Made by a program: the position numbers and the translations under genes. Shown one piece after another: positions 1 through 41,612 of a stretch of 64,000 nucleotides of DNA (position 1 is its first letter; the number at the start of each line of letters is the position of its first letter). The notes under the pieces were generated by a model. It saw nothing but the letters and a program-made list of their open reading frames with translations, searched no databases and had not been told where the DNA came from. The stretch is from Stieleria magnilauensis (GTDB lineage: Bacteria > Planctomycetota > Planctomycetia > Pirellulales > Pirellulaceae). The stretch covers positions 10,139,381 through 10,203,380 of the forward strand of contig CP036432.1 in assembly GCA_007753675.1 (NCBI GenBank). The letters are read 5' to 3'.

Positions 1-1650
1 ATCTTCACCATCGGCAGCCGGAACCGCGGGCGGCGGCGGATCGCCCGAGGCCGCCGGCGGTGCGACTTCTCGCACCGTGTACGTGAAGGTATCAACGACA
101 TCGATCCCGTCGGCCTGCAATTGCGCGATCGTCGCACTGACCGTCGGGTCGTAACTGAAGCTGCCGTCGGGATACACGATCACACGCGCGCCGTATTGGC
201 TGAATCCGTCGAAGGAAGCTTCCAGGATCGTTCCGTTGCTGGCCGCGTCGGGATCGGTGTCGTTGGCCAAGACTCCGTTACTGGCGGGCACCTCGATCTT
301 CTGCGTCGCAACGGTCCAGAATCCGCGTTCGACTCCGTCGGTACCGGCGATCGGTGCATCGTCCACTCCGATCACTTCGATCCGTACCGTCGCGATCGAT
401 TCGGCGCCTCGTTCGTCGAGCACCACGTACTGGAACGTATCGATTGCCGTTTCGCCTTCGGCCAGTTCCGCGAACGCTCCGGATGGATCGTAGTCGAACG
501 TTCCGTCCGGCCGCAGCGTCACGAGTGCACCGCCGGCGCTGAACAGATCTGTCTGACTGGGGTCGATCAGCAACGGCGGCGGCGAATCGATGTCGCTATC
601 GTTGGCCAACAGACCATTGGCGGTCGTGGTCGTCAGCAAGCCGTCGGCCGAGACGCCGGCGTAAAAGTCGTCGACGGCGGTTGGGGCGTCATTGATCCCC
701 GTCACCAGCAACGTCACCCACTCGGTCGCCGAGTCGTCGAAACCATCGGTGACGCGAATCAAAAAGCTGTCGCTGGTGGTCTCACCGGGGCCCAAGGATT
801 GAATCCCGGGCGATCCGGATGCATCGTAGACGAACGTGCCGTCGGCGGCGATGATCACGGTGGCGCCCATTGAACTGGTCACCGTTTCTTGCACCATGCT
901 CAAAGCCGCATCGGCGGGCAAGCGGTCGACGTCGGTCGCCCCGACCAGCAACGATTCGAACGTCCCCCCGTCGATCTCGCCGTCTTCACTGATCGTGATC
1001 GACGTCGGTGCCGCCGTGGGAGCAAGATTGATGCGACTTTGCACCCAGATCTGTGCGACAGCGGTGTCGCTCAGCCCCGAAGGATCCGAGACCGTGTAAG
1101 TGATTTCGTCAAAGAGATGCTCACCGGCCGCAAGGTTGTCGAAAGCGGCCACCCCGGTCGGATCGTAAACGAAATCACCGTCAACCAGACCAATCGACGC
1201 ACCGCGCAGACTGGTGGGCGCGATCAATGTCACGGTCAATCGATCATTGACGTCGGGGTCGAAGTCGTTGACGATCAAGTCGGCCGGATTGATTGCGACG
1301 GGAACGCCGGCGCGGGTGTACAGCGTCGGCGTCAGCTCGGTCGCCAGATCGTCCACCGCGGTCGGACCAGCGTTCTCTCCGCTGATGGTCAGATAGACGG
1401 TGGCTGTTGCGGGTTGATTGCCGCTATCGCGCAGCGAGTACGTAAAACTGTCCGTGATCGTTTCGCCACTGGCAAGCGAATCAAACACGCTGCCGGGAGT
1501 GAACGTGAAGCTACCGTCCGGCGCCACGCTGACCACGCCGCCCCATCGTGTTTGTGGATCGAATGATTCGATCGCCGACACACCGGCCGCGTCGTTGGCA
1601 CGCAAGCCGTTTGCCGTGTCAACCGTTAGCACCGCCGATGCCGACGACGA
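1..1650 (-). repeat. Five VCBS/cadherin-tandem-like repeats at the visible C-terminal side of the giant gene
   Basis: Five units, about 290-320 bp each, repeat NDAPTAVDD-type starts, NGLLANDxD turns, xPDGSFxYDP strands and a DxFTYxV close. The last unit ends with VDTFTYTVREV followed by a proline-rich linker (GDPPPPAVPAADGED) at the window edge. VCBS-type repeats commonly precede anchoring regions in bacterial adhesins; the anchoring region itself is not visible. Confidence 0.8.
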
Positions 1651-4600
1651 ATAGTAGTCGGTGACGGCAACCGCAGCGGCCGAAGAGGGAATCTGCATGG
1701 CAAGTTGCAATTCGCCCGTCGTCGCTCCTTGGGACAAGTCCGCGACCGTGGCGGTCGCAAATCCGGCGGTCGGTGCGGTGGTTGCCGTGTAACCGAACGT
1801 CAGCTGATCCCCGGCACCCAAACCGTCGACAGCCGGATCGATCGCCGCCAACGTGATGGAATCCAATCCGGGAACAACCGAGACGCTCCACGTCGGGGGA
1901 ACGACCAGGTCGCTGACAGTGACGTCCGTCGGGATCGGAACCGAAATCGAATCGAGTCGTCGCGAGAGTTCCGCAGCACCGGTCGCCGTGATCACGTAGC
2001 GGTACTCGTTACCGATGGGCGTGACGCCGACTTGCAGCTCGGGCGCCACCGAGGAGTCGCACGTCCATGACACTTCGGTCGGTTGACTCTGGCGTCCGAG
2101 TGCGTCGATCGCGGAGAAGTACAGCGTGTGATCGCCGTCCGGGAACGGAGCTCCATTGATCGACTCGATGTCGGTCGGCGTCAGCGTGAACTCGCCCGCA
2201 TTCAGATAATCGTTCAGGTCGAACACGCGTCGGGTGAACGTGGGATCGGTGCTGACGATTGCGTTGGTGATCGCGTTTTCGGCGCGCAATTGGCCATGGA
2301 CGATCGGCGGCGTCAGCGTGCCCTGGTCGATCACGTCGAAGGTAAACGTCGGGGGCAGCAATTCGCCGCGCGTGAACACGAACGTTTGCTCGGTGATGTT
2401 CCCCGCCGGGTCTTCGCTCGTCACCAGGAACTCGTTCGCGCCGACTTCCAAATCGACGACGAAGAAGAACAACCCCGACGCATCGATCGTGGGCGTCTCG
2501 TTTTGCCCGCTCATCGTGACACGGCTTCCCGGTTCCGCCGTCCCGATCATGTTGACTTGGTTGTCGGTGGTGTGATTCGCTCGGACGCTGCTTCGATGGA
2601 ATTCGAGCATCTCCAGCGTGACCGCCTGCGGGGGTGTCGCATCGATGGTCAACACGAGCGGATCGGACGGTCCGGCACGATTGCCCGCGGCGTCTTCGAT
2701 GGTCGCCGTCAGGCTGTAGGTTCCCGAATCGAGTGTCGGCAACGTGTACTGGGCGACTCCGGTCGACAGGACTTCGCCGACGAAACTCCCGTCGGCAAAG
2801 AACTTGACCAGGGCGCCTCGCTCGGCGAACAAACGGACGGTCGGTTCGGTCTGGGCGGTCAGATTGTCAAACTGGTCGTGCCCCAGATCGTCGGACGTGA
2901 CCAAATCTGGCGGGGCTTCGATCGGTGGCCCCGTGCGGTCGAGATCAAACTGAAGCTCGGCGCTGGATTCATTGCCCGCCGCGTCGGTCGCGACCATTGA
3001 CAACAGATGGCGTCCGTCGGGCAACGTGTCACCGAACAGCAATTCCAGTCGTGCCAAGTCGATCGAAAGCAGGTCTTCGTTGAGCGCCGAGGTGATGTCG
3101 ATCGGCGCTCGACCGTCCAGCGATCCGACCAGTGACACCACATCGGAAGCGTCTCGGACCAGACCGCCGATCGTCGGATCTTGGGTGCGGGTGTCGGTGT
3201 CACTGCGTCCGGTGTCGTTGATCAGATCGATTTCGAAAATCGGTCCGTCTTGATCGACGAACACGACGTTCAGGTTGACCGTTGCAGTGTTGCCGGCCGG
3301 ATCGGTCGCCAGAACCTGCAACGCATTAGTGCCGGGCGTCAGCTGGACGCCTGCGATTTGAAACCGGTCAAACTCACCGGCCACGGTGAAGTTTGGTCGT
3401 CCGACCAGTTCCAGACGGGTGCCTCTTTCGGCCGTGCCGACGAGGGTGACCGACGAAGTCGTGGTATGGAACGGGCTGCCCAAATCGGCTCGTTGCTGCG
3501 CCGCGAGCAACCCGACGGTCGGTTTGATGAACGTGTCATCGAACGTGATGAATCGCGGCGCGGTAAAGAAACTGACGTTGCCGGCTGCGTCGATCGCTTG
3601 GGCGACAAATCGATGCCGCCCGCGTTCGCTATCGGCCGACAGTGTGACGATTCCGCCTGCATCGGCCCGGTCGACTTCGTCACCGTCGGCAAACAGAATG
3701 ACCTGGGCGTCCGCGGCATCGACACTGGTGACAAACGTCAGCGTCGGGCTGTTGGTGATCCCGTCGCCTGGAGTCCCCGAATCGCTTGCCGCGTCGAGTC
3801 GAAGCGGCGCGGGCGTGTCCGGTCGGGTCGTATCAAGGGTGAAAACAAGTTCGGCGAGTTCGGAGACATGACCGACCTGATCTGCGGCACGCATGCGGAC
3901 GCTGACTGAACCGTCATCGAGCCGATCACCGGCGATCGTTTCGAGCACGCTGCGATCGAGTGTGAATGCGTTGTCGCGCAACGATCCCAGCGTATTGACG
4001 AACGCACCGGCGTTGACGCTGACTTGGAAACTGGTGATGCGGCTCGCGTCGTCGACCCTGCCCGTCACGGTCGGATCCTTTGTCAAACGATCGCTCGCCG
4101 AAACCCCGCTATCGTTGGCCAGTTGCAATTCGATTTCCGGAGCCGACAGGTCGGGAGCGTCGTAGGTCGTCGACGCGTCCACCTCGATCGGATTGCCCGC
4201 CAAGTCCTCGGCGACCACACGAAATCGATTCAATCCGTCACGAAGTCGGACTCCGTCAAAGCGATAGCTGCCATCGGCTGCGGCGATGGTTTCGCCGATC
4301 GCCGTTTGCGAGTCCAAGCCTCGATACAGGAACACGGTTGCATCGGCTTCGGTCAACCCGCTGATCGATCCGGCGTCCGACCCCGCGCCCGGCAACGTGA
4401 TCTCCGACGTCAACGAATCGGGCGCTGTGGTGTCGAGGACCACCGTCAATGGGTCACTCTGTGTGCTGACGTTTCCCGCGACATCGGTGATCGTCGCGGT
4501 GATCTGGTGCGTACCCTCGCTGAGCCCCGTGAGCGTGACCTCGCCGGGCCCGTCGGGCAACATGAATTGCGCATGCGGGTTTCCATCGACCAACACATCG

Positions 4601-22600: not shown

Positions 22601-25600
22601 AACTCCAGATCACCGAGCGTGTCGAGCAGCAGATTACCGTCGATCGTCAACTTCCCCGCCGGAGCGAGCAACCCGCCCACGATCAAGTTGCCCACGACAA
22701 CACCGCTTCCCGTCAACACGGATCCGGGCTCCAGCGTGAATTGCCCGCCCACCACACTGTTGCTGCTGGTCGTCACGTAGACCCCGCTCAGGTCGGTCAG
22801 CGATGCGGAATTGGAGCTTCCTAAATCAACGGCGCCGCCGTAGCGTGAATGGATCCTCGAGTACCGCGCATCGCCGGACAGGCTGCCGGCCGAGGGATCG
22901 GTGAATGACTGGAGTCCGGAGAGATTGATCGAACTACCAATCCCCTCACTGAGCAATTCGACGCGTCGTCGTCGTTGATCGCCCTGGCTGGTTTCCGTGA
23001 TTGCTTGCGTACCGGAAAGATCAATGACCCCGCCGGAAAGCGATTCCAACAACAGAAGTGCGTTGTAATTGTTTCCACCCGTGATTTGGGTCACGTTTTG
23101 CAGATCGATGACGCTTCCATAGCCTTCGGCGCGCAAAACTTGCGATTGGCTCGAACCGGTGGTTAGATGGGTGATCGACGTGACCGCGGGCAACGCGAGG
23201 GTCACTCCATCGATCACGATCAAGTTCGCGCCGTCGATGTTACTCAATAGTGGCAATGCGACGTGACCGCCACCGGTGAGCGTGATCTCGCCGCGTTGGA
23301 GCGTGGTCAAAGCGGGCGCGGCGACTTGGTAGCCATGGATACGCAGCGCGGTTCCGGGCGCGTCGGTCAGCACGTTCAATTCGATCGTTCCGACACCAAC
23401 CGGTTCAATCACGCTGTCGCGTGCCGATTCGAGTGCAGGTGCGGGAAACGTTCCGAGCTCATCCACATAGACGCGAACGCCACGAATCGTTGTTAAGGCT
23501 TCGGCGTCAACTTCTCCGCCACGGGTGGCGGTCAGGGTGGAGTAGACTTTGTCACCTGAATACGGCACCGGCGGTTGGCCGACATCGGTGAGTGTCGTGA
23601 GCATCGAGACATCGATTCGACTGGCGCGGCCGTCGGCGATAAAGTGAACCGCCCGACGTCGGGTGTCGCCTGAGGACGGGTCCGTGACGGTTGCCAGTTT
23701 TGGCAGTTCAATCGCCCCGCCGTCTTGAGCTTCGAATCGAAGCGTCGCTTCATAATGGGTGCCGCCGGTGATCTCGGTCAGATTCGGCAACGAGATTCGA
23801 CTGCCATCTCCCGATGCGATGAACTGGCGCGTTTGATAGTTGCCCGTCGAAACGTGCGAATAAGCGGTGACCAAAGGAAACTCGACTTCGATTCCCGAAG
23901 ACACCGTCACGCCGGATCCGTCAAGATTGGTCAACGAGACGAGGTTGGCGCTCCCATCGGCAGACAGGTTGATCGTTCCCTGCGTAAACTCGGTGATGTT
24001 GGGTGCGTCGATGGTCGCATCGTTGGCGACGAACGACGTGTAACTGGCTGTCAGCAGATTGGGAAAACGGACCGTGTTGCCCTTTGCCGCAACTTCCGAA
24101 GCGGACAGGGTGGTGACGCCGTCGAATGTCCAATCACGACGCTCATCGGGCTCGATCCGAACCCCGATCAACGTTTGCAGGGCATCGAGACGAATTTCGC
24201 CGCCGCGACTGAACACCAATTGTGATCGCTGACCGTCACTGCTGGACGACCCGCTGCTGTCTTGGAATCGCGACAGCGAACGCAGGTCGATCGAACTGCC
24301 CCGATCCCGAGCCACGACGTGGATCGCCCTGCGCCGTGTGTCGCCGGACAGTCCGTCGACGATCTCGGTAACACCGCGTAAATCAATCCGTCCGCCCGCG
24401 TGCGATTCGATCGTCAAGTCATTGTCGTAGAAGGTTCCCCCGGTGATTTTTGTCAGTCCGCTCAAATCGATCGACGAACCGGCACCGCGAGTCGTCCAAG
24501 CTCGGTCTTCATAGTTGCCGGTGGCAATGAAATCGTATTCGGTGACACCCGAAAGATCGAGTGAACCGCCGTCAAAGACGGACAGTGAAACACCGTCGAT
24601 CTTGGTGAAATGGCTCCAATCGATCGCCAATCCGCCCCGCAGGTTGATCGCACCGCGATTGAGTTCCGCAAGAGCACTCAAGTCGGCCGTCGCTTGATTC
24701 AGCGTGATTGTCGTGTTGGCCGCGGCGGTCAGTCCGCTGAAATCGTAATCGCCGAAACTCAAATTCAAATAAGCATGATTCACCGATTGGATGTTTGCCG
24801 TTTGCATCGCGCCACGGCCGTCGAGTGAAATTTCCACACCGACCAGTGACTCGATCGACGGCGCATGAATCGTCCCCCAATCGTAGGCGACCAATTGGGA
24901 ACGTTCGTCCGGATTGGCATCGGAGAAACTTGTCAGCGCGTCCAGACGGATTTCGCTGCCGAACCCCGAAGCGACGAATCGCACGCGGCGAACCCGGGTA
25001 TCGCCGCCCCCATCGTTGATCTGGGTAACCGCGGGCAGATCGATCGTGCTTCCGGCCGTCGCGGAAATCGTCAGATCCGTGTCATAGTGCCCGCCCCCAG
25101 TGATAGCGGTCAAACCGGTCAGCGCAATCAAACTCTGTGGCCCGTCGGTCGTCCATGTTCGGTCTTGGTAGTGTCCGGTCGATGCGTGATCGTACGTCGT
25201 AACCAACGGCAGACTGATCGACGAACCGTCGCCGGCAAACAGGGAGGTTCCATCGATGTTGGTCAACAAAGGCGCCGAAATCGCGGCGAGATGGTGCAGC
25301 GTGATCGCCCCACGGGTGAACGACGTCAGCGACGAAAAATCGACCGATGAACCCGTCGCGGTCAGACGGACCGACGTGGCCGTAGCCACCGCACTCAAAT
25401 CCAACGTCGATGTCCAGGGCTCGACATCGACCCGATCGAGCGACGCGACATTTTGCAACGTGACGCGGCTCTGGGCTTCACGGACGACCCGCACGCCGGC
25501 AAGCGTTTGCAGCGACGGGGTATTGATCGTTCCACGATCTCGCGCCTCGATCGAGGAGTACTCCCCATCGAATTCCGAGGAGCGATCGTTGATCGAGGTC

Positions 25601-28600
25601 AACAGCGGTGCGTCGATCACACTGCCGTGACCGTTGGCGACCAAGTTGATTCTGCGCAGCCGCAAGTCACCGGAATTCGGGTCCTCGATCGTCATCAAGG
25701 CCGGCATTTCGATTTGCCCACCACCGAACACGTCGATGCCGAGACGTGCCTGGTAATGAGTCCCCCCGGTAATCGTCTGCAACGCATCAAAGACGATCCG
25801 GCTACCGGCGTCTTCGACGAACCAACGCCGCGTTTGGTAGTTCGCCGTCGATCCTTGGGAGTATTGAGTCAGGGTCGGAAAATGCAACGCGGCGCCTCCG
25901 ACGACGGTCAAGCTGGCGCCGTCCAAGTTCACCGTTCCGTCGGCGGTAAAACTCGCATCCCGTCCCGAAGCCGCCAAGGTCGCACCGTTGTTGACGACCA
26001 GCGATCCCGAGAGCACCGAGCCGTCATGAATCGTCAGCGACCCGCCGGTGATTTGCAGATTCCCCGAACCATTGATGCTGCGGACCGCTTGGCCGCCGGC
26101 GGAGATCGTGACGGTCACCGCCGCGTTATCCAAAATGACATCGTCCTCGGCATCGGGGACTTGGCCGGTACTCCAGTTTGCCGCCGTCGTCCAATCGCCG
26201 TCGCCACCGATCCAGGACACCGGTGCAGCCTGTGCCGACGGAGACTCGACCGGTGCCATCGGGAGTTCGGCGTGTGCGACGATGTCGTTGTTTTCAATGA
26301 CCGGGGCCGCAGCAATGATCGGTTGCTCGGCGGTCGCAATCGGACTGTTTGCGACATCGCCGTTCACATCGGCGTTGACCAATGTCACGATGGACGGCGC
26401 AAAGATTCGGCCGTCGGACGTTTCGGTCAGAAACGAACGCACGTCCCCGTTGACGTCGATCAGGTTTACCAGCGAATCGAACGCGATCTCCGAACCGCTG
26501 CCCGTTGCCGTGAATCCAAACCGTCGTGTCCGCGTGTCCCCGTCGGGACGATCGACGATTTGTTCGACGCCGCTCAGATCAAGCGATCCGCCGTTGCTGA
26601 CAGTGACATTGAGTCGGTTCTGGTAGGCACTGCCGCCACGAATCCATTTCACTCCGGACAGATCGAGTTTGCTTCCAGACCCGCTGATTTCCCAAGTCGA
26701 CTGTTCATAATTTGAGGACAATGCCAGGTCATAGGACTCGATACCGGGCAACGAGACTTCAGTCCCACCGTAAACTCGGAAAGCCGTCCCATCGATCGTC
26801 GTCACTGCCGGCAGCTGGATCGTCGCGCCGGCGTCGGTGGTCAACGTGTTGAAGACGAACCGCGTGATGCCGGGCAAGGAAGCGTTGGCATTGTTGAGCG
26901 ACAATTCGGTCCGGCTGATCGACTGCAGCGACGTGAAATCACTCGGCATCGAATGAATCGTCACCGCACTGTGCTCCAGGCGAACCAGGTTTGCCGCGGC
27001 CAGATCACCGGCCGTGTCCAGCGTCGTGGTGACACCATGCAAGTCCGTCAGCAGAGGAGCCACCAGTCGTCCGCCGGCGGTCGCATCGATTCGCGACCGC
27101 TGGTCGGTGTTTCGATCAATGATTGAGGTCAATGCACTCAAATCGATTTGGCTGCTCTCGCCTTCCGCCGTCACTTGAAAAGACCGCACGCGGGTGTCGC
27201 CGCCCCTGGGGTCGATCAGCTGCGTGACCGATGACAGATCGAGCACGCCTCCGCCGGTCGCCCGGATGGTCATGTCGGTGTCGTAGTGGCTGCCTCCTAA
27301 AACGCCCTTCAGGTTCGGCAGTTCGAGCCGGCTGTCGACGCCATCGACGTGCCAGATTCGATCGACGTAGTTGCCCGTTGATGCATGTTGATACTGGGTC
27401 ACACCGGGCAGCGAAACGGTGACTCCGCCGCTGACGCTCAGGTCGGTACCGTCGATATTGGTCAACAGCGGCGCCGTAAACGTCGCTCCCGCAGTCGCCG
27501 AAATCGCACCTTCACGAACGCTGGTCAATAGTGGAACGCTCAGGTCGACTCCGGTCAGTGCAAATTCCGTCCCGTCGGCGATCGTCAATTGGTTCAGCGC
27601 CACACTGCTGCCGCTGAGTGACAGCCGCGAGTGGGACAACACTTCGAATTGCGACAGCGGCATCGTGCCCGTGCTGTCGTTGATGAAGTGGACGCCATGT
27701 GCATCGGTCAGATTACCGATCTGAAGACTGCCACCCGTAGCCGCTTGAAAGACCGAACGTTGATCGGTATTGAGATCGACGACCTGTCGCAGCGAGGCAA
27801 GATTGATCAACGAGTTGGCTTGGGTCGATCTGAATTCAAATGCCCCCCTGCGGTTGTCGCCGGGAATGTCTTGCACCGAGACTAGCGACGGCAGATCCAA
27901 AACCCCGCCGTCACTGGCGGTAAAGTAATGTCGCGTTTCATAACCGGGCGATCCGGTGATCGTGGTGACGTTCGGCAATTCGATTCGGCTGCCGGCGCCG
28001 GAGACGGTCCAAGTGCGGGAGTGATAGTTTGAGGTATTGCTGTCTCGCACGGCGGTGACCGAAGGCATCGACAAAACCGCACCGCCAGAAACATTAAAAT
28101 CGGCCTGATCGATGTACTTCAGGGCACTGACGTCCAGCGTCGCTCCCTCGCGAAGAATCAAGTCGCCGCCTTGGATCCCGATCAGACTGGACAGATCCAC
28201 GGCCGCCGAGCCGATGTCGAACGTGACGTCGTCGGCACGGGTCAGATTCGGAAACGCTCGGTCGACATCGCGGATCGTGACAACGCTTTGAAAGATCCCG
28301 CGGAACTGATCGGAGGTGATCGAACCGGACGCGCCCAAATTCAAGCGGGCACCACGAATGAACTGCAAATTTGGAGCGACGATATCGGCCCCTGCGGTCG
28401 CTTCGATCAACGAACTGTTTGAGGTGTTGCCGTCAAATCTGTAGTCCGCAAACGAGACCAGCTGCGTCAAATCAATCTGGCTGTCCGCGCCGTCGGCATC
28501 GATGACAACGCGTCGCAATCGTGAATCACCGCCGGTCGGTTCGGCGATCGTGGTGACCGAGGATAGATCGAGTGCCCCACCGTCGAACGCCTCTAAATAG

Positions 28601-29970
28601 AACTCGGCATCGTAATGCGACCCGATTTCGATGGCGGCGAGGTTCGGTAGTGACAACGTGCTTCCGGCACCGCTGGCTCGAAAACGTTTCCGCTGATAAT
28701 TGCCGTCCGACCAAAATGAATAGTGATCCACCGCCGGCAACGTCAACGTCGCGCCGCCGGAAACGAGTAGGCTGGACCCGTCGATGTCGGCGAGCGCCGC
28801 CGGCATGAAGGTTCCGTCGCGCAGATCGACCGTCGAACGGACGGCGCGCTCCAGCAGCGGCGCCGTGTGAGTGCCTCCGGAGAGCACAAGCGTCGTGCGT
28901 TCCAAGTGCCGCAATGCATCCAGCGGCCCGCCTTCGGCGGACTGAAGTGTGATGCTGGCGCCGATCGCCGAATCCAGTGCACCGAGTAACAGGTCGCCGC
29001 CATCGGATTCGAGCAATCGGGTCAGCCCATCGGCGTTATAATCCTGCACGGCCACCAGCGCTGACAGATCGATCTGGCTGGTCGCGCCGGTGGCGCTGAA
29101 CTCGATGACGCGATTGCGCGTGTCACCGCGACTGACATCGACGATCGATTCGAGCATCGGCAGCGCAATCACACCGCCGGCCTGGGCGCGAACATACGTG
29201 TCGGAATACCGGGAGGTGCCGCCGATGATGTCGACGAGGTTGGGAAACTCGATCCGACTTCCGCTGTCGGTGGCGGTGTAGTAACGATCCTCGTTGTACT
29301 CCGACGAAATCGGAAACCGCGTGACGCCCGGCAAGGAAATCACACCACCGGAATTGGCCGTCACGTTGACGCGATGGAGTTGCACATCGCCATCAACCGT
29401 CAACGCTGCATCGTCTCCCGTGGCAACCAGCGTCAAACCGCGTTTGAGATCCAAGTTGCCGCCGACGGAGACATTGCCCAGGATCACGAACTGGCTGGCC
29501 GAACCGTCGACGGTCATGTCCCCGGCGATCGTCGCCGTCAGGACCTGGCCGTCGGTCGGGTTGAGCGTGCCGTCTTCGAAGCTCACCTCTTGTGCGATCA
29601 GACTGCGCGTGCGCAGTTCCGCGCCGTTGACTTCCAAGTGTTCGGTCGTGTCGATCGAATCGACGACCACGTTCGCGTCGATCCGCACCAGCAACTCGCT
29701 CGACGCATCGGCGATCACCGCTTGATCGACTGCGGTCGGCACGACGTCGCCGTCCCAGTTGAGCGGATCGTGCCAACGCTCGTTGTCACCTCCGCCATCC
29801 CAGGTGACGGTGGCGAGCAAATGCCGGTCTTCCAGTTTCTCAAACGGAGACCGCATCAAGCCTTCGGAAAGCTGCTTGCGTCGCAGTCGAGCCGCCTTGA
29901 TGCGACGACGATCACGAAGCTTTTCCACAACCCCGCGCTGGTCACCCAGCGAGTGTTTGTTCCGAGTCAT
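1..29970 (-). CDS. Giant multidomain secreted adhesin/matrix protein (3' end outside window)
   Basis: One reading frame is open from an ATG at 29,970 to the left edge: 9,990 codons with no stop noticed. Frame was confirmed by translation at 1-120, around 9,300, around 18,060 and at the start. An in-frame TAG lies just upstream (29,980-29,982), so this ATG is the first usable start; no Shine-Dalgarno is seen. Approximate residues: LEDRHLLA motif 46-53; ten ~220-residue repeats 190-2,280; Ig-like 2,540; thirteen CARDB-like domains 2,655-4,385; PPC-like 4,380-4,480; propeller-like 5,345-5,575; nine He_PIG/cadherin-like 5,830-6,705; RHS/YD-like 6,885-7,165; dockerin-like 7,290-7,350 and 7,930-7,990; Ig-like repeats 8,090-9,265; five VCBS-like repeats 9,440-9,990. 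Families with these domains act outside the cell in adhesion or matrix formation; that role is inferred. Domain names are by motif reading only. Confidence 0.93.
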   Translation of the reverse strand, partial: MTRNKHSLGDQRGVVEKLRDRRRIKAARLRRKQLSEGLMRSPFEKLEDRHLLATVTWDGGGDNERWHDPLNWDGDVVPTAVDQAVIADASSELLVRIDANVVVDSIDTTEHLEVNGAELRTRSLIAQEVSFEDGTLNPTDGQVLTATIAGDMTVDGSASQFVILGNVSVGGNLDLKRGLTLVATGDDAALTVDGDVQLHRVNVTANSGGVISLPGVTRFPISSEYNEDRYYTATDSGSRIEFPNLVDIIGGTSRYSDTYVRAQAGGVIALPMLESIVDVSRGDTRNRVIEFSATGATSQIDLSALVAVQDYNADGLTRLLESDGGDLLLGALDSAIGASITLQSAEGGPLDALRHLERTTLVLSGGTHTAPLLERAVRSTVDLRDGTFMPAALADIDGSSLLVSGGATLTLPAVDHYSFWSDGNYQRKRFRASGAGSTLSLPNLAAIEIGSHYDAEFYLEAFDGGALDLSSVTTIAEPTGGDSRLRRVVIDADGADSQIDLTQLVSFADYRFDGNTSNSSLIEATAGADIVAPNLQFIRGARLNLGASGSITSDQFRGIFQSVVTIRDVDRAFPNLTRADDVTFDIGSAAVDLSSLIGIQGGDLILREGATLDVSALKYIDQADFNVSGGAVLSMPSVTAVRDSNTSNYHSRTWTVSGAGSRIELPNVTTITGSPGYETRHYFTASDGGVLDLPSLVSVQDIPGDNRRGAFEFRSTQANSLINLASLRQVVDLNTDQRSVFQAATGGSLQIGNLTDAHGVHFINDSTGTMPLSQFEVLSHSRLSLSGSSVALNQLTIADGTEFALTGVDLSVPLLTSVREGAISATAGATFTAPLLTNIDGTDLSVSGGVTVSLPGVTQYQHASTGNYVDRIWHVDGVDSRLELPNLKGVLGGSHYDTDMTIRATGGGVLDLSSVTQLIDPRGGDTRVRSFQVTAEGESSQIDLSALTSIIDRNTDQRSRIDATAGGRLVAPLLTDLHGVTTTLDTAGDLAAANLVRLEHSAVTIHSMPSDFTSLQSISRTELSLNNANASLPGITRFVFNTLTTDAGATIQLPAVTTIDGTAFRVYGGTEVSLPGIESYDLALSSNYEQSTWEISGSGSKLDLSGVKWIRGGSAYQNRLNVTVSNGGSLDLSGVEQIVDRPDGDTRTRRFGFTATGSGSEIAFDSLVNLIDVNGDVRSFLTETSDGRIFAPSIVTLVNADVNGDVANSPIATAEQPIIAAAPVIENNDIVAHAELPMAPVESPSAQAAPVSWIGGDGDWTTAANWSTGQVPDAEDDVILDNAAVTVTISAGGQAVRSINGSGNLQITGGSLTIHDGSVLSGSLVVNNGATLAASGRDASFTADGTVNLDGASLTVVGGAALHFPTLTQYSQGSTANYQTRRWFVEDAGSRIVFDALQTITGGTHYQARLGIDVFGGGQIEMPALMTIEDPNSGDLRLRRINLVANGHGSVIDAPLLTSINDRSSEFDGEYSSIEARDRGTINTPSLQTLAGVRVVREAQSRVTLQNVASLDRVDVEPWTSTLDLSAVATATSVRLTATGSSVDFSSLTSFTRGAITLHHLAAISAPLLTNIDGTSLFAGDGSSISLPLVTTYDHASTGHYQDRTWTTDGPQSLIALTGLTAITGGGHYDTDLTISATAGSTIDLPAVTQINDGGGDTRVRRVRFVASGFGSEIRLDALTSFSDANPDERSQLVAYDWGTIHAPSIESLVGVEISLDGRGAMQTANIQSVNHAYLNLSFGDYDFSGLTAAANTTITLNQATADLSALAELNRGAINLRGGLAIDWSHFTKIDGVSLSVFDGGSLDLSGVTEYDFIATGNYEDRAWTTRGAGSSIDLSGLTKITGGTFYDNDLTIESHAGGRIDLRGVTEIVDGLSGDTRRRAIHVVARDRGSSIDLRSLSRFQDSSGSSSSDGQRSQLVFSRGGEIRLDALQTLIGVRIEPDERRDWTFDGVTTLSASEVAAKGNTVRFPNLLTASYTSFVANDATIDAPNITEFTQGTINLSADGSANLVSLTNLDGSGVTVSSGIEVEFPLVTAYSHVSTGNYQTRQFIASGDGSRISLPNLTEITGGTHYEATLRFEAQDGGAIELPKLATVTDPSSGDTRRRAVHFIADGRASRIDVSMLTTLTDVGQPPVPYSGDKVYSTLTATRGGEVDAEALTTIRGVRVYVDELGTFPAPALESARDSVIEPVGVGTIELNVLTDAPGTALRIHGYQVAAPALTTLQRGEITLTGGGHVALPLLSNIDGANLIVIDGVTLALPAVTSITHLTTGSSQSQVLRAEGYGSVIDLQNVTQITGGNNYNALLLLESLSGGVIDLSGTQAITETSQGDQRRRRVELLSEGIGSSINLSGLQSFTDPSAGSLSGDARYSRIHSRYGGAVDLGSSNSASLTDLSGVYVTTSSNSVVGGQFTLEPGSVLTGSGVVVGNLIVGGLLAPAGKLTIDGNLLLDTLGDLEFDIAGLAPISQHDVLEVTGFVEFLGTIRTVQGGGYQPAEGDSYLVMTFDVKFGTPTYEGLDFGSQLLAPELSPTSLEFITGFSSGAAITSITPSDSAVYPNGPFLVIEFDEPIDPESFFVDDVTLIGPGAVPINIDSIEPFAETDNLFLLRPDFAQYVDGQYSITIGPDVLDFVGNVMNQDKDQINGEPIEDQFTGTFDWALPDLELVGGNLTTPETTYSFGGDIPLSFQVTNSGASVAGGNAWRDRVYLSTDLILDGNDVLLESVSRDDPLAVGDSYPLDLTLTLPLDDNLLAGTYYLLAAVDYFDWISESDENNVYASAALELTFPPLVDLLPTSITGPTAGQPRQSNVFTWEVTNQGDEPTATHWYDRVYLESVSNPATRYLIGTVLQSGPLSPGQSYVSMMTTNLPDLADGDYRIQIVSDYNNRIFEGPYEDNNALYGGITTMTHPDVEIRNFDAPAAGNSGQQVELTWDFLNSGTAAAETWQQRVYLSDNQTLSGDDRLVDEFIISSPLDPGQTRSESRTIRLPVDLEGNKFLLLVTDTAGQLGELSAGENNNVAAKLIELTLSPYADLAVSNVTAPALTIGDPADITVGWTVTNRGLGRGFVDQWTDAIVLSENATVGDADDLVVATFEHTGGLDQNASYTRSENFRLPIATNGRFTLFVRSDFGDLVFENDLEANNDVARLGEIDIMPAPYADLVVDSIDVPLPVNAGEIASLTWTVRNAGIGVTSRGDWYDRVYLSTTPDATGLIDGTETDFQHFGQIAPDGTYDRTGNLRIPDGLSGDHYLIVHAARRNAPFEFLYNDNNFTASAAFSITLLPPPDLIVASVTAPTEAQEGTLVDIQWTVENIGLNEASGGWVDRVYLQQAGNPNADVIQLGQFPFIDPLAAGQTYHRSERVRIPTQTTGTFNLFVKTNFNDALYEGAGDDNNTTSHEIVINVLPRPDLQVESITIPDRLPAGATLSPEFVVVNQGGVGTGSTQWVDRVYLSLDTTVDHADVLIGELPNSAALLAGERYSTEAGSVVVPIRYRGDVYVIAVTDAQDRVEEWPNNNNNLTYKSIYIEPEPLADLVVSDVVAPSQVVAGSTISIRYTVTNLGSGATHGDTWSESVWLTRDKNRPHPGQGDFFLTTLTHQGALDRFAGYETETTVRIPRELESGTWYITPWVDPFDVIPEDTLASNTNPDDPNNFDNNNYKARAIDVLGSQPDLVVSEVIAPPTGSGGDTITVTWTVDNLGLADAEPGGWIDRIYLSDLPDPKSVHATTLLLGEKKRDLPLAKGASYTDSMDIALSPSATGQYIVVITDDDVPPEPSIDLSGFFPQIPPPEKYHPVDEVDETNNATAVNSDIRSYPANLKVVEFDIPDNVFSGEEVTFTYTVENIGTHPVWGGTRYWKDFIWLSADDEFVRRRASFLGTSIYAPTSIINPGDRYTIAFTTTLPEGTGDDYSLWVHLDAHNDRSPLYFPYQARLLETDWYPANEGDNATWLGHFDRWAFEDPSDNLARADFPIIYKEADLTITDFQVPAGATSGETIQISYTVENVGNRETRVGSWFDRLFISHDASLDNFDHEIGSRFRTGTLKPGETYTGTIQARLPDGIEGDFSLLLFTDSAARQDRARRPSNIGFKLIGLEFETPGTLAPWDLASEASRESARANVKEYQLEGNNIAIRDLPITLAPLPDLQVTAVTAPLRADRGQEINVEFTVSNLGGDTVAGQQHWFDLIYLSRDEFLDLSTDVYLGSLERKVGLDAGASYTTSRTVSLPADLLGPYYVFVITDPDRNNVSGNVFEGPNERNNSRTTAVPTIIELPPPTDLQVTDITVPANVEAGSPATISWTVTNTSNETASGRWSDSLFFSSDATWDLRDAPAGRLEFRGTLAPGESYTQTFQTITPSLTPGAYRAIVRTDIFNQVYEDVADGNNITASPSTMQLTAPFLTLDVPLPTTLATGQQRLYAVEVPFDRTLRVTVFADDDSTHEIFLRHNDAPTVRTFDASSGGTLSETPAAIIPATEAGTYYVLVRGFATESDQSPIRILAELLPLAITNIKTDLGGDSKYVTTTISGARFHEDAVVKLVRPGFAEIVPVNRNYVSASEIIVTFDFEDAPHGLYDVQVINPGGEVAVVPYRFQIERTIEPEVTIGIGGPRYIFAGDPGTYSVALQNLGNIDAPYVFYNVGIPEMGINDFVYGLPYNHFTSNLRGGPEEGSLADLPWAELESAVNTDGTVTAGGYLFDHPADGFAGFTFQVQTYPGLRELHDHAWESFKAKIYAALPQYAEIDLLADGPSALDQISPGLSFIWEVFGAVPDFLTIPKIPFQFHVVASATSMSRDEFVDHALAEADQLRQGILDDADADAALVNLAGNEAAWQSMYLSYLAESGRLRAEDAVPPTRRDQELASLMATLAGGVLRGPGGDQIILSGEFGDFFDTVRRWYGHDPTLKAPNDTTGANFTGDSLSFFGILSGANPVPELPTFDDYDLGLDLNTHFQTMRVYVPWVPFDKRGAGIPADYQIRGITPNDEDVFFPLNLQEYYDQQGTNVGAVSQTGPFTLETGGFVPANEPLPFTINFQNDPNTTRDANEVRVVVPLDENMDVRTFQLGDIKVGDITIRVPGGRALYQGDFEFAETLGFNVRVSGGVDVKSNAATWLIQAIDPLTGEVRTNTDGGLLPPNNAQGRGAGFVSYSIELSDDAETGQSLTAKARVLLDNAPPEDADDLTYTIDAQAPASNVTVTPLNAQNDFVVAWNVADDAGGSGFKHVTLYVAEDGGDYKIWQRQVGQAVGEEVFIGRVGHTYEFLALATDLAGNRETPPAGATADDDGTANSLGALPTVDATTRPNFGQPTPPTTEPSTNPLFAAAENLVPSTGSTTNPAIFDTVLQPFTAKRFADGFDITATGVATSGIGPMAITETPDGDILISGGTARNQLYLFDANGGTAEGTWAELDHPIFNLAFDDDGRLWATTGGGPLLQLDPIDGSILAEHGEGLTMGLAIDPAGGDVIVGSRYGVERFDPDTGTFKRLSRDLDLRVGSLAFAGDGTLYGVQWPERDAVVRFNPLGRAETVLSFETPIDSIAFGQTETSLEGLMFVSHNTGNTGFGQSVATGENSELTMVDMATLRRVAVATGGTRGDVVATTSDGRVLITQSEQVDVISPIAIPEVVATHPAEQTVVALPLGLVSVTFSEEMFTGLGTEIESVLNPGNYAIRGDAALPEDQQPVITEVRYHEASQTAYLFVQGFSAGEHTLYIGKGIESVGGFSLPAGYEVHFTTVSEFSADVDITLTGTRFDRQTQALTYEVEIRNSGDYDLLLPMSLVLDPAGGDVSAGGAVPGQPAIPGPDGRWLFDLTANVPDGVHLRPGESTTAKTIRLLSPNNVAADFVPGFLATASPNLRPDFETDPVTFATVDQPYSYDADAVDPDGVAVAYLLQRGPDGMTVDPETGLVAWTPTVGVAEQNDVVLYAFDSRGGFTSQTWTVRVTGGNRAPEFVQPPADARMIENETLQIIVEIDDREDDPVDVWADNLPPGAFFDPASKTLWWTPGENAAGVYRDVTLVATDGISITRHAFDLLVGQADRPPVLDPIPEFTLRQGDQWTYRIGASDPDGDRLLFTSADLPSGATLDSRDGTLRWTVGFDVPPALSIPVTVTAGGQSVDGQIDVTVINANGAPSFDAMQGWSVEEGQTLVITSFAFDPDHPDFELPVRLGDGTLDPPGLVSPIAYRVTGLPDGATFDSETATLTWTPRYDQSGDYSVLFEATDDGDGVSDPITISSRVPISVRDINQRPIIDPISNLTLGRGGMVDIPVSVADPDGDNITLEAANGFPGLPLPDFVSFTDNGNGTGSFHFAPGTGDRGNYTLSLIASDDGNGHGRGRIETVQYDFVVTVESANDPPVLAPVSSLVVLPGELLRLPLQSSDLDQEPLTYAMSGLPVEARLVDGARYGEALLNWDPTAADLGIYNVTVTVTDEGNGDLARSLTSSQSFVITVRGTNTAPTLTVPADASVDEGETLSVDFSATDPDNDTIRFFADDLPAGATLDPATGRLQWSPTFNDAGSYAIQVVATDGSGSDAKPFAITVGAVNRAPRLAFPAAQYAREGVFAQFQVTGADFDGGSLELTASDVPDGALFDASTGVFRWQPRYDQAGTYHVTFTLTDSESASDSITVPIVVENVNRAPVIESRHHQVVVGNLLDFSIAGTDPDLDDTLTFSAYGLPTGAQLDPATGRITWVPNPGQLGRTIIDARASDGLAETKHTIVIDSVATPQLPDVRIVTTPSFPALPGQTVRVDVIADGFAPIDSLGLTLDGVPVALDANGRGEIVAGVPGKQTLVATATDVDGFVGSTTETLRVRDSADKTPPQLALSFGGVTTATEPLDLIASVVDVNLDNWVLEIASRGSNDFRPLVEGESTGDGFVLTTIDPATIANGIYTLRLSARDISGRGSETTIDLAINSALKTDAFVRTDVDATIVVGGKTFEFARQYDSLAQNVTGRLGDGWRFTFGETRLQLGITPQQRAGGSDPIALESIGIYSALSAGDRVYLDLPDGTRGGFTFEPVAVQPFDQNDTLVFYRPNWVADDGVDFALESLDRLLVAGGNRYYDQETGQPYHPANDVLGDQAYRLTYPSGKVDVLDGNGRLARQVWPDGDVWHFSDSGISFSDGTFIPIVTDDAGRVESIRLPAGLSSLGDLHYVYDDAGRLIEVAAVAVPPTGDPPVSLHRYGYESRSGGALTVATGIGGENTSYPRGLPLTGDLGRAIDFSGAEIINELEAGQTHQYAFTIDQDQLRSTGEQVVWVRAMVERYRSPFVAGTPSIAGLSPIARSVDEDRTVALFAIDRADQYVLDVRGASDDDDGRYQLFLDVVGDINRDGAVDGLDSELIFESFGTFVGDLEYNPHADFDSDGAITVADSQLLAANFGFTSDFAALALTDRFVTDPLFPIFQPDPVSGTPPTMETPVDPSTGTDTRITPAPEPVPEVDPPTLIPISLAPTDGAAFAIRNGLFDAAGDQWSVGGDVSFDDGTATLHETLGERTSVRQAFFVPGDASILRFTVTGLTLAATDARTPDAFEVALLDATSLAPLAGQLAIGNSDALLNIASDGTYTSASSVTVGDADSVDPSADLGGTVSGDRLLVQIDLTAIPAGTLAVLSFDLLGFAETHSEVKIDNVFLVTGQLRAPVANTDLVTTDEDVPVIFDVLANDVDNESLLDPSTLTIMSGPSHGQLFVTPGSGHVTYAPDLDYSGNDSFTYTVKDLDGFVSGEAFVSLTVAPITDDPLLTTERTSGPQDTELPLSIDAAAMDIDGSEEVMITIQSLPQGATLSGGTRVADGHYRLRPDELDALSLIPAAGWSGQAKLEVQVTATDQTADPVVKTESLDLDVESVIVEPMSVVDFVVNRGEVQRSLIHTLTVTFNQDAWIIDPAADIFIIDIDGHQIRLDPSRYTYDSGTFQLNLDVDGLIQQDKQYYLALRTAGIASAANRLQTLATGPEFGGDYFPLPFHRLLSDVNGNNEVEVEDWRDIRNSLNSNADSSRYVRHRDLTGEGIIDRHDFVAWRNRLTLTTDFVAPQIIAAVTLPNNALPLVESYQSNAEFSLVINDVSDVSSLLMSINGSADVEMVDELSADKSFRFPLADLFARAGQAFGEGDHVITLVATDRFGNVSDPEDVELTIDDTAPPVPTTPVLVQADGSEVSGVTVGDPNVMIRSEGETGSIVRLYRGDQEIALGVAASPVDFPLNLTGLGDGTFTFSATAEDPTGNRSPVTGTLTLTVDTTAPQIDSLDLDPASDTGVIGDQTTDLDSVTLIGTTEPGAVVRLTGTAIETTADAGGAFSLSAVPLRFGPNVLTVSSADSLGNTRQRSINLFRPRLESDAPEIAVTLSDDTGLYFNDAVTSQPTLSGAINDASAIAGLFLSVNVVSAANSTTASYGPADVTASLTGATFTLSTADIENAIGQPLDDGDVTFTLQAVDLYDNASARRSVSLVLDTTAPAAPARLALSPDSDLGREDQDAITSTTKLSFGLHVSEQSTVDVLVDGNPHAQFMLPDGPGEVTLTGLSEGTHQITATITDVAGNVSTQSDPLTVVLDTTAPDSLTSEITLPGAGSDAGSISGLTEADATVFLYRGLDSQTAIGETIAAADGSYRFDGVRLRDGLNRFRVVAEDLAGNPIEVDASTTYDAPDLSAPEIELQLANDSGVSASDRLTKDPTVTGRVDDASRITSFQVSVNAGAFVNTLGSLRDNAFTLDRSVLETIAGDRLDDGSVSVRMRAADQVGHVSELAELVFTLDTTRPDTPAPLRLDAASDSGTPGDGITNSPTLTFVTSVDAADAQVILFADGDEVDRADAGGIVTLSADSERGRHRFVAQAIDAAGNVSFFTAPRFITFDDTFIKPTVGLLAAQQRADLGSPFHTTTSSVTLVGTAERGTRLELVGRPNFTVAGEFDRFQIAGVQLTPGTNALQVLATDPAGNTATVNLNVVFVDQDGPIFEIDLINDTGRSDTDTRTQDPTIGGLVRDASDVVSLVGSLDGRAPIDITSALNEDLLSIDLARLELLFGDTLPDGRHLLSMVATDAAGNESSAELQFDLDRTGPPIEAPPDLVTSDDLGHDQFDNLTAQTEPTVRLFAERGALVKFFADGSFVGEVLSTGVAQYTLPTLDSGTYSLTATIEDAAGNRAGPSDPLVLTIDATPPQAVTLEMLEFHRSSVRANHTTDNQVNMIGTAEPGSRVTMSGQNETPTIDASGLFFFVVDLEVGANEFLVTSEDPAGNITEQTFVFTRGELLPPTFTFDVIDQGTLTPPIVHGQLRAENAITNAIVSTDPTFTRRVFDLNDYLNAGEFTLTPTDIESINGAPFPDGDHTLYFSAIDALGRQSQPTEVSWTCDSSVAPELQVGVTPIGNEYRYVITATGAAELSRRLDSISVPIPTDVTVSDLVVPPTWSVSVVPGLDSITLAAIDPAVDGLGAGDQLTFGYTATTAPTAGFATATVADLSQGATTGELQLAMQIPSSAAAVAVTDYYSSSASAVLTVDTANGLRANDAAGVSAIESFDPQTRWGGVVSVAPDGSFTFTPGSVFDSLASGETITDSFTYSLRDSGNQPATATVYLTISGENAGPTAVDDLATELTPTLYTRAGVPVAINPADLIVNDFDPDVNDRLTVTLIAPTSLRGASIGLVDGDFVYDPTGVAAFDNLAAGEHLFDEITYTVSDPSGLSDTAVAQIWVQSRINLAPTAAPTSITISEDGEIDGGTFESLLVGATDVDRLPADAALSMVQETVTSSMGATVIIAADGTFVYDASGSPGIQSLGPGETTSDSFLIRVTDGFDDSATEWVTLLVTGINDAPTAVDDFYAGVSADGLLTTTTANGLLANDSDIDSPPPLLIDPSQTDLFSAGGALVTLRPDGTFDYDPSGAFAELAEGETAIDTFQYVVLDERGAESIATVRIEVIGVDDAPIAGTDGVERGFWTVATQKIEVPASNGVLANDTDPDAASNGTILEASFDGFSQYGARVIVYPDGSFSYDPTVSATIAQLQADGIDVVDTFTYTVREVAPPAASGDPPPPAVPAADGED
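6005..6185 (-). other. Internal dockerin-like segment 2 (degenerate)
   Basis: The translation reads LSDVNGNNEVEVEDWRDI followed by RDLTGEGIIDRHDFVAW. Spacing matches the first segment but several calcium ligands are replaced (for example N for D and T for D), so metal binding may be weaker. Confidence 0.6.
7915..8095 (-). other. Internal dockerin-like double EF-hand segment 1
   Basis: The translation contains GDINRDGAVDGLDSELIF and, about 40 residues later, ADFDSDGAITVADSQLL. The paired D-x-N/D-x-D-G-x-(I/V)-x-x-x-D loops are the dockerin type I pattern, predicted to bind two calcium ions. It sits in mid-protein rather than at the C-terminus. Confidence 0.75.
8480..9320 (-). other. RHS/YD-repeat-like segment inside the giant gene
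   Basis: The translation shows FVRTDVDATIVVGGKTFEF, then RxYDSL, GxLGDGWRFTF, a YRLTYPSGKVDVLDGNGR stretch and HYVYDDAGRLIEV. This order resembles the beginning of RHS/DUF6531-type shells and a single YD repeat. There is no sign here of the long repeat barrel or C-terminal toxin of polymorphic-toxin RHS proteins. Confidence 0.7.
9860..12480 (-). repeat. Nine He_PIG/cadherin-like repeats in the giant gene
   Basis: Units begin with NxAPxL/NRAPxF-type starts and contain DPDGD-type calcium-binding loops, LPxGAxxDxxTGxxxWTP signatures and an AxDGxG close. These are the putative-Ig/dystroglycan-cadherin repeats common in bacterial adhesins. Copy number is counted by eye. Confidence 0.85.
16820..22005 (-). 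repeat. Thirteen tandem CARDB-like domains in the giant gene
   Basis: Successive units open with PDLxVxxxxxP-type strands near 22,000, 21,615, 21,265, 20,900, 20,515, 20,145, 19,770, 19,405, 18,985, 18,550, 18,065, 17,570 and 17,175. Each continues with WTVxNxG, DRVYLS and an EDNN-type end. CARDB domains are bacterial beta-sandwich adhesion modules of about 110-130 residues; the spacing here fits. Confidence 0.85.
23150..29400 (-). repeat. Array of about ten ~220-residue (660-690 bp, one longer) repeats in the giant gene
   Basis: Copies begin near 29,350, 28,780, 28,100, 27,450, 26,790, 25,930, 25,255, 24,590, 23,925 and 23,235 (approximate, by eye). Each carries in order a NIDG-like turn, a STGNYQxRxW-like segment, an ITGGxHYD-like segment, a GDTRxRR segment, a DxNxDxRS-like segment and a GGxIxAPxLxxLxGV close. 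Many LSL/LPxLT rungs suggest a beta-solenoid. The 5th-to-6th spacing is longer because a second W-x(n)-ANW-x-G-x-xP motif is inserted near 26,130-26,225. I do not recognise this repeat as a named family. Confidence 0.75.
29812..29835 (-). other. LEDRHLLA planctomycete N-terminal export/sorting motif
   Basis: Residues 46-53 of the giant protein read LEDRHLLA, following a basic stretch (RDRRRIKAARLRRKQ) and the lead-in SPFEK. LE-x-R-x-LLA motifs are a recurring N-terminal mark of large secreted planctomycete proteins. It supports both the chosen start and an extracytoplasmic location. Mature protein probably begins shortly after, at the W-x(n)-NW-x-G segment near residue 58. Confidence 0.85.
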
Positions 29971-40827: not shown

Positions 40828-40865
40828 GAGAAAAGGTGTCAGGATCAGTCCTGGCACCTTTTCTC
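40828..40865. terminator. Hairpin upstream of the sigma factor gene
   Basis: Arms 40,828-40,844 and 40,849-40,865 pair over 17 bp with one mismatch around a 4-base loop; the stem includes AAAAGGTGTCAGGA. The right arm ends in CCTTTTCTC, terminator-like. It may stop transcription before the sigma gene, or be one more REP-type palindrome. Confidence 0.6.
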
Positions 40866-40931
40866 GCGCAGCCAGAGAAATTCGCGGCACGTATTCTTGA
40901 AAAATGCGTCTCTGGAAACAAAAATGCTAGC

Positions 40932-41525: not shown

Positions 41526-41612
41526 TCGGCGATTTCATCCCGGCCTACGTTTTGTGGCCAAGAGGCAAATGGTGACTTGCAACGCGAATGGCGTTTGGGT
41601 TCAAATCTTTGC

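What the first reader, a model, noticed from the sequence alone, without database searches (positions are those of the whole stretch)
1..29970. Gene of at least 9,990 codons, among the largest bacterial genes
A single frame stays open over the whole left half of the window with no stop noticed in the segments read, and starts with a planctomycete export motif. It joins CARDB, He_PIG/cadherin, VCBS, RHS-like, dockerin-like and novel repeats in one chain. Such size (over 1 MDa before the C-terminus) with this mix is rare and suggests a giant surface or predatory/attachment structure.
Basis: partly seen in the sequence, partly recalled or inferred. Interest (0 to 1): 0.75.

Follow-up and report, generated by a model that had tools for sequence, protein, structure and literature searches.

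The report
Giant toxin stalk with split warhead
A 13,980-residue surface protein of a planctomycete bacterium appears to be the stalk of an antibacterial toxin weapon whose interchangeable toxin tip is made as a separate small protein, with the self-processing domain that should join stalk and tip divided between the two.

Summary
One minus-strand frame covers window 1-29970 and closes 11.97 kb outside it: 13,980 codons, 1.48 MDa. Copies found by their HINT1 domain lie in 12 of 14 genomes of the genus (Stieleria, inferred): 16 copies, 15 of them 12.4-14.0 thousand aa, under purifying selection. Giant genes are known in planctomycetes; S. varia has a 13,990-aa one annotated as an adhesin. New is the C-terminus. 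In 8 of 16 copies a second HINT leads into a tip that differs between most species. In the window's copy and three orthologues this HINT2 is cut after about 11 residues: its first strand, with Cys1, ends the giant before a membrane helix; a separate downstream protein carries a helix, the remaining HINT, a toxin (here Endonuclea_NS_2), then a candidate immunity gene. Frame relations differ between species, so this is neither sequencing error nor frameshifting. Similar stalk/tip pairs and unlinked tips, two beside serine recombinases, occur elsewhere in the phylum. Best reading: a giant polymorphic-toxin stalk loaded in trans through a split HINT. Reassembly, secretion and killing are untested.

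The parts
1..29970 (-). Coding part of the giant gene inside the window (aa 1-9990 of 13,980). The rest lies left of the window (window coordinates continued below 1): S/T-rich 46-residue repeats -9929 to -2562; HINT1 -10814 to -10248; HINT2-N peptide -11666 to -11634; TGA stop -11972; ORF2 cartridge (helix, HINT2-C, Endonuclea_NS_2) -13479 to -12046; ORF3 candidate immunity gene -14153 to -13476; all minus strand
   Evidence: outside parts
29791..29970 (-). N-terminus: basic region then FEKLEDRHLLATV (aa 1-60); a like motif in paralogues A and B; 'export motif' is recall
   Evidence: no NCBIfam family at E<=0.01 for aa 1-800
22771..29793 (-). 219/220-residue repeats (aa ~60-2400), no Pfam family above cut-off
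16831..22173 (-). CARDB repeats (aa ~2600-4380), about ten (4 and 6 stretches in two pieces overlapping by 100 aa)
9901..12573 (-). He_PIG repeats (aa ~5800-6690), about seven
7927..8079 (-). Dockerin_1, best of two stretches (aa 7298-7348)
2101..5973 (-). Big_13 / Ca_tandemer repeats (aa ~8000-9290)
1..1773 (-). Big_9 / cadherin / VCBS repeats (aa ~9400-9990)

Best explanation
The gene encodes the stalk of a polymorphic-toxin weapon. Shown from sequence: a 13,980-aa stalk of adhesin-type repeats, then a region with a 46-residue period (predicted beta hairpins), then HINT1, a hydrophobic segment, and the first strand of HINT2 with its Cys1, closed by a hydrophobic helix and a stop. The remaining HINT2 (TxxH and terminal His-Asn) sits on a separate protein with its own N-terminal helix, fused to a nuclease and followed by a candidate immunity gene. 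Inferred: both proteins sit in the inner membrane with the HINT2 pieces in the periplasm; the 11-residue N piece completes the HINT of the tip protein; this cuts the toxin from its anchor after Asn (or, where the next residue is Ser, could splice it to the stalk); the exported stalk then carries or delivers the toxin to neighbouring bacteria. HINT1 may cut the stalk from the membrane part. I give 0.85 to 'polymorphic-toxin stalk' and about 0.6 to 'HINT2 works in trans'.
For: PT-HINT matches in the giant and in ORF2; aligned to eight whole HINT2 copies, the ORF2 HINT starts at about residue 20 and the giant supplies residues 1-11. ORF2 tip = Endonuclea_NS_2; own-genome paralogue tip = Tox-REase-2 just under cut-off; the small ORF after the second G209 copy = Imm33-like 6.7e-39. 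Among six of the eight fused copies, HINT2 residues 1-155 are 86-95% identical, tips 13-34% (30 shuffles of one pair: mean 16.6, max 20). Split at the same place in 4 species with two different frame relations and, in G209, a stop in the ORF2 frame after the giant's stop. The 11-residue N piece: mean identity 0.76 across 8 stalks lacking a HINT2-C in cis, against 0.26 for the tail after it (the peptide was located by its last 'CF', so C and F are the same by construction, but V3, T6, V8, P11 and the Lys before it are also the same in 8 of 8). dN/dS 0.17-0.25 for HINT-C in three pairs, 0.30 for the tail. Cartridge model: all 19 Foldseek hits at E<=0.001 are inteins or BIL domains.
Against: No expression, secretion or killing data. 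Only 2 of 10 tips scanned hit a toxin family, one of them below cut-off; 1 of 9 small ORFs scanned hits an immunity family, not the window's. No export partner was looked for. Some tip pairs exceed the shuffle maximum (G207/G212b 34%, OWN/G209a 28%), so they may be distantly related. The cartridge model has mean pLDDT 60 and query TM at most 0.18 in the intein rows. dS is above 1 in most bins, so dN/dS is rough. In the window's species the residue after His-Asn is Ala, unfavourable for splicing. Cartridges also occur where no HINT-N was found (G213; many contigs), so a HINT-C may act alone. Two of 14 genus genomes lack the giant.
Confidence: 0.6

Rival explanations
1. A giant adhesin or biofilm/rosette protein; the HINT remnants and downstream ORF are leftovers of an older toxin.
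For: Most of the length is adhesin-type repeats; the 13,990-aa S. varia giant is annotated so.
Against: HINT1, the HINT2-N peptide and the cartridge HINT-C are conserved in several species; tips vary while HINT2 residues 1-155 stay.
Confidence: 0.17
2. The window's copy is a toxin gene broken by a frameshift or displaced tip; the split is decay or sequencing error.
For: Polymorphic toxins often carry displaced toxin cassettes (recall); fused copies exist (8 of 16).
Against: Same split place in four species, two different frame relations, the same ATGTCCGC start 69-74 nt downstream; other split stalks in S. maiorica (G207), in G214 and in other genera.
Confidence: 0.05
3. The HINT-C cartridges are independent membrane-anchored toxins that need no stalk; HINT-N on the giants has another role, such as anchoring.
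For: Cartridges with no HINT-N found nearby are common; several lie in unrelated neighbourhoods.
Against: They lack the first HINT strand with Cys1; all 8 genus genomes with a HINT-N-only giant also have a close cartridge (E<=1e-60), against 2 of 6 others (Fisher p 0.015; related genomes, cut-off chosen after seeing the list).
Confidence: 0.2

Closest known systems
Polymorphic toxins with pretoxin HINT (PF07591; PMC3482391, passages seen)
   Same: Repeat stalk, HINT before a variable tip, a toxin family of known kind, small ORF after the tip
   Different: Stalk is 13,980 aa; HINT2 is divided between two proteins in the window's copy
Atypically split inteins (PMC3443213, start of abstract seen in the listing; VidaL structure 6vgv is row 22)
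   Same: Very small N piece, large C piece, Cys1 on the N piece
   Different: Each piece has a membrane helix and the C piece a toxin; the residue after Asn is Ala here; activity unknown
CdiA/CDI and RHS toxins
   Same: Long stalk, C-terminal tip, following small ORF
   Different: No FHA/TPS or RHS family in the giant at E<=0.01
Planctomycete giant genes (PMC5177795, PMC7717043; passages)
   Same: Same phylum and genus, adhesin-like repeats; S. varia Pla52n_23610 is 13,990 aa, the length of the G216 copy
   Different: Its table row names adhesion and surface functions only; 'toxin system' stands there for another giant, Pla52n_68570 of 6,872 aa
Omnitrophota giant ORFs (PMC10066038; passages)
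   Same: Giant surface-type ORFs
   Different: One of 39,678 aa; most Velamenicoccia ones described there as poorly conserved with few domains

Membership tests
Polymorphic toxin system | Variable C-terminal tip on a conserved stalk | tested here: met
   (six of eight fused copies, four split tips); sequences
Polymorphic toxin system | Recognised toxin domain at the tip | tested here: met
   Endonuclea_NS_2 in the window's system; 8 of 10 tips scanned have no toxin family
Polymorphic toxin system | Immunity gene directly downstream | tested here: inconclusive
   ORF overlaps by 4 nt; 1 of 9 small ORFs scanned hits an immunity family, not this one
Polymorphic toxin system | Known secretion route | not tested
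   no search made for an export partner
PT-HINT (PF07591) | Profile match and Cys1, TxxH, His-Asn | tested here: met
   profile matches are partial; in HINT2 the residues lie on two proteins
Split intein | Two polypeptides that together make one HINT | tested here: met
   sequence level only:
Split intein | Cys/Ser/Thr after the final Asn (needed for splicing; recall) | tested here: not met
   Ala in OWN and G209a, Ser in G211a and G212a
Split intein | Trans-splicing or trans-cleavage activity | not testable with these tools
   needs purified proteins
CDI two-partner toxin (CdiA) | FHA/TPS domain | tested here: not met
   none at E<=0.01
RHS toxin | RHS/YD repeats and core | tested here: not met
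   none at E<=0.01
RTX adhesin | RTX repeats / C-terminal type I secretion signal | tested here: not met
   no HemolysinCabind family; the C-terminus is HINT plus hydrophobic helix

The most novel reading that the evidence does not exclude
Planctomycetes run a trans-loaded toxin system: one giant (or several-thousand-residue) membrane-tethered stalk displays an 11-residue HINT-N 'socket', and many small toxin-immunity cartridges carrying the rest of the HINT, encoded next to it, in arrays, or on mobile elements elsewhere in the genome, plug into it. A genome can re-arm the stalk without recombining into the 42-kb gene, and mobile elements can parasitise or supply the weapon.
Probability: 0.4. 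Interest if true: 0.92.

Novelty: new variant of a known kind. Interest (0 to 1): 0.72.

Why it matters
It gives a testable function to one class of planctomycete giant genes, which have been counted and, in the papers read, filed mainly as adhesion or surface proteins. If the HINT works in trans, it is a natural split self-processing domain used to arm a weapon, would explain how toxins are swapped on a 42-kb gene, and offers an unusually short N piece for protein engineering.

Tried and rejected
RHS-like region: no RHS family in the giant. Programmed frameshift between giant and ORF2: rejected, two different frame relations and an intervening stop in G209. Pseudogene or sequencing error: see rivals. 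RHS-type shell for the S/T region: the 50 Foldseek rows shown are outer-membrane barrels and apoB/vitellogenin sheets with query TM at most 0.46 and rmsd above 13 A, so I claim only long antiparallel hairpins. Anti-phage defence: no PADLOC match for 5 proteins. Profile coverage of PT-HINT as proof of a missing first strand: rejected, because the whole HINT1 lacks it too. Alignment A3 was not in repeat register and was not used. The HINT-N pattern in the 70-locus survey is a strict regular expression: its 42 'none found' are not proof of absence; L117 does have a HINT-N stalk further upstream. Two earlier versions of the flank scan used a wrong pattern or orientation and were redone, where L078, L079, L082 and L091 still gave no motif. 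The C-terminus of giant B was never scanned with a family library (one search failed).

Full report
1. The observation. The frame is real and on the minus strand: ATG at window 29970, open to the left edge. The window is G000:C1:10139381-10203380 of a one-contig genome of 10,769,056 bases. The next stretches show the stop, TGA at genome 10127408, so the protein is 13,980 aa, 1,478 kDa, pI 4.2, 6 Cys. The other five frames of the same DNA hold 131-614 stops. Between this species and G209 the protein is 71.6% identical over 13,908 aligned residues with dN/dS 0.05-0.33 in all 28 bins of 500 aa; dS is 0.89-1.94, so the ratios are rough.

2. Who has it. The HINT1 region (370 aa) finds copies in 12 of 241 genomes of the family, all in the one genus, of which 14 genomes were searched; none in the other 67 genera at E<=1e-10. 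Sixteen copies (four genomes have two): open frames 12,447-13,995 aa except one of 6,880 (G204). The own genome holds a full paralogue A of 13,551 aa at C1:4493699-4534354 and a third giant B of 10,002 aa with RHS-type repeats by eye. Names: lengths of G209 and G207 equal those printed for Stieleria neptunia and S. maiorica (10,975,817 and 9,894,293); contig lengths equal those of records titled S. sedimenti (G211), Rhodopirellula sp. SM50 (G212), Planctomycetes bacterium SV_7m_r (G205) and Rhodopirellula baltica BR-MGV (G204). The genus of the window's own genome is inference.

3. Architecture. aa 1-60 basic plus LEDRHLLA; 219/220-residue repeats to ~2400; about ten CARDB; a stretch with weak or no families; about seven He_PIG; dockerin; Big_13/Ca_tandemer; Big_9/cadherin/VCBS. 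From ~10,845 to 13,300 the protein is about 38% Ser+Thr with a 46-residue period (autocorrelation 0.189 against 0.105 expected, peaks at multiples of 46). Six units of an orthologue, aligned with other units of three copies, are predicted with pLDDT 95 as 20-residue antiparallel strands joined by short turns. A profile of these units finds 10 of 396 order genomes: 8 of the 10 genus genomes listed, and 2 in another family (an even draw that does not hold all genus genomes).

4. The C-terminus. HINT1 (aa 13,407-13,595) has all motifs; Pfam matches only part of it (PT-HINT 73-137). A hydrophobic Gly/Ala-rich segment follows, then CFVAETPVWVP, the first strand of a second HINT, a hydrophobic helix, an Arg-rich stretch and the stop. 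In the window's copy and orthologues in G209, G211 and G212 a separate ORF starts 69-74 nt further on with ATGTCCGC, a hydrophobic helix, the remaining HINT (PT-HINT 2.1e-10, positions 32-136) and the tip. Its frame is +1 relative to the giant in two species and +2 in the other two; in G209 the ORF2 frame has a stop after the giant's own stop. Neither frameshifting nor a base error explains that. In 8 of 16 copies HINT2 is whole (218 aa in all eight) and fused to its tip. In the remaining 4 (G204, G205, G206, G214) the giant ends with HINT2-N and a helix and no cartridge follows directly.

5. Polymorphism. Six of the eight fused copies compared pairwise (15 pairs): HINT2 residues 1-155 are 86-95% identical, residues 156-218 33-79%, tips 13-34%; 30 shuffles of one pair give 16.6 on average and 20 at most, and three of the 15 pairs exceed that (22, 24, 34). 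Split cartridges (6 pairs): TxxH-to-HN 84-99%, tips 15-28% except the close pair G211/G212 at 94%. G207 and G213 carry tips of one kind by eye. Ten of the 12 tips were scanned with Pfam: Endonuclea_NS_2 for the window's system (6.8e-10), Tox-REase-2 for paralogue A (27.0 bits, cut-off 27.6), nothing convincing for eight. Nine following small ORFs were scanned: one Imm33-like (6.7e-39, G209 second copy), eight without a convincing family.

6. Is the split HINT used? The 11-residue N piece is 0.76 identical on average among the 8 stalks without a HINT2-C in cis, the tail behind it 0.26. I located the piece by its last 'CF', so C and F are the same by construction; V3, T6, V8 and P11 are also the same in 8 of 8. 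HINT-C has dN/dS 0.17-0.25 in three pairs. A model of the S. sedimenti cartridge (mean pLDDT 60, HINT part mostly 70-90) finds inteins or Hint/BIL proteins in its first 36 Foldseek rows, 19 of them at E<=0.001, with query TM 0.10-0.18 because only part of the chain matches. All 8 genus genomes with a HINT-N-only giant have a close cartridge (E<=1e-60, a cut-off chosen after seeing the list); of the other 6, two do (G207, which has another HINT-N stalk, and G213, where none was found); Fisher p 0.015, but the genomes are related. The residue after His-Asn is Ala, Ala, Ser, Ser in the four split cases, so release by cleavage is more likely than splicing in the window's species.

7. Beyond the giant. 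The HINT-C part matches 66 of 241 family genomes (21 of 68 genera) at E<=1e-8, fused and standalone together. A scan of genome contigs gave 70 loci, 66 of them titled as planctomycetes: by my pattern 14 fused (13 of 14 pass a hydropathy threshold inside the HINT), 4 split with the HINT-N ORF next door, 10 at contig edges, 42 without a HINT-N found. Further split stalks: G207 at 8.1 Mb, G214:C11, G171 and G028 in other genera, and strain 10988, where one stalk is followed by three HINT-C ORFs, the middle one short. Unlinked cartridges with their own small ORF: SV_7m_r has two, about 2.3 and 2.4 Mb from its giant, with no HINT-N pattern in about 9.6 kb upstream; two each in G204 and G206 and one in G214, with none in 6.8-8.1 kb upstream (a third G204 match was not examined; one of the G206 pair lies about 6 kb from that giant on the other strand). 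In G204:C53 and G214:C2 the cartridge follows directly on the 3' end of a Mg-chelatase gene (ComM-like, name recalled) with a serine recombinase just upstream; Pfam confirms Resolvase/Recombinase, Mg_chelatase_C, PT-HINT and, in G204, a WHH nuclease tip.

8. Mechanism. The R-rich stretch behind the first helix and the basic start of the cartridge suggest (positive-inside rule, recall; by eye) that the break lies in a cytoplasmic loop, putting both HINT2 pieces in the periplasm, each on its own helix. Joining them would complete the HINT, release the tip from its anchor, and hand it to a stalk that has its own HINT1 between stalk and membrane. Order of events, export and delivery are inference.

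9. Known or new. Giant genes in planctomycetes, and a 13,990-aa one in S. varia, are in print as adhesion or surface proteins (passages: PMC5177795; PMC7717043; PMC11573180). HINT as a processing domain before toxins is in print (PMC3482391 passages). I saw no paper on a HINT divided between stalk and toxin in the listings (open PMC papers; only the best 10-12 of each list shown); 'split hint' counts 0 in the ten listed. Subscription papers and preprints were not searched.

Noticed in passing
G000:C1:4493699-4534354 (L021-L023): Full-length paralogue of 13,551 aa in the same genome with two whole HINT domains fused to a Tox-REase-2-like tip and a 118-aa ORF about 17 nt after it.
   Followed up: yes
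G000:C1:8533733-8563741 (L024-L025): Third giant, 10,002 aa, N-terminal LEDRRMLA motif, RHS-type repeats by eye, short C-terminus meeting an ORF that looks like an ISAs1-type transposase (by eye).
   Followed up: partly
L195 (G204:C53) and L199 (G214:C2): HINT-C cartridges placed right after a Mg-chelatase gene end with a serine recombinase upstream: toxin cartridges on what look like mobile elements.
   Followed up: partly
L117 (Planctomycetales bacterium 10988): One stalk with HINT-N followed by three HINT-C ORFs in a row (the middle one short), two of them followed by a small ORF.
   Followed up: partly
L004, aa 10,845-13,300 of the giant: About 53 units of 46 residues, predicted from an orthologue as 20-residue beta hairpins, with no Pfam family; also in two genomes of another family in much shorter frames.
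   Followed up: partly
window 40836-44944: Two ORFs that read as an ECF-type sigma factor and a Ser/Thr kinase with a repeat C-terminus; by eye only.
   Followed up: no
G210 and G215 (same genus): No copy of the giant at the thresholds used, although both have distant HINT-C matches.
   Followed up: no
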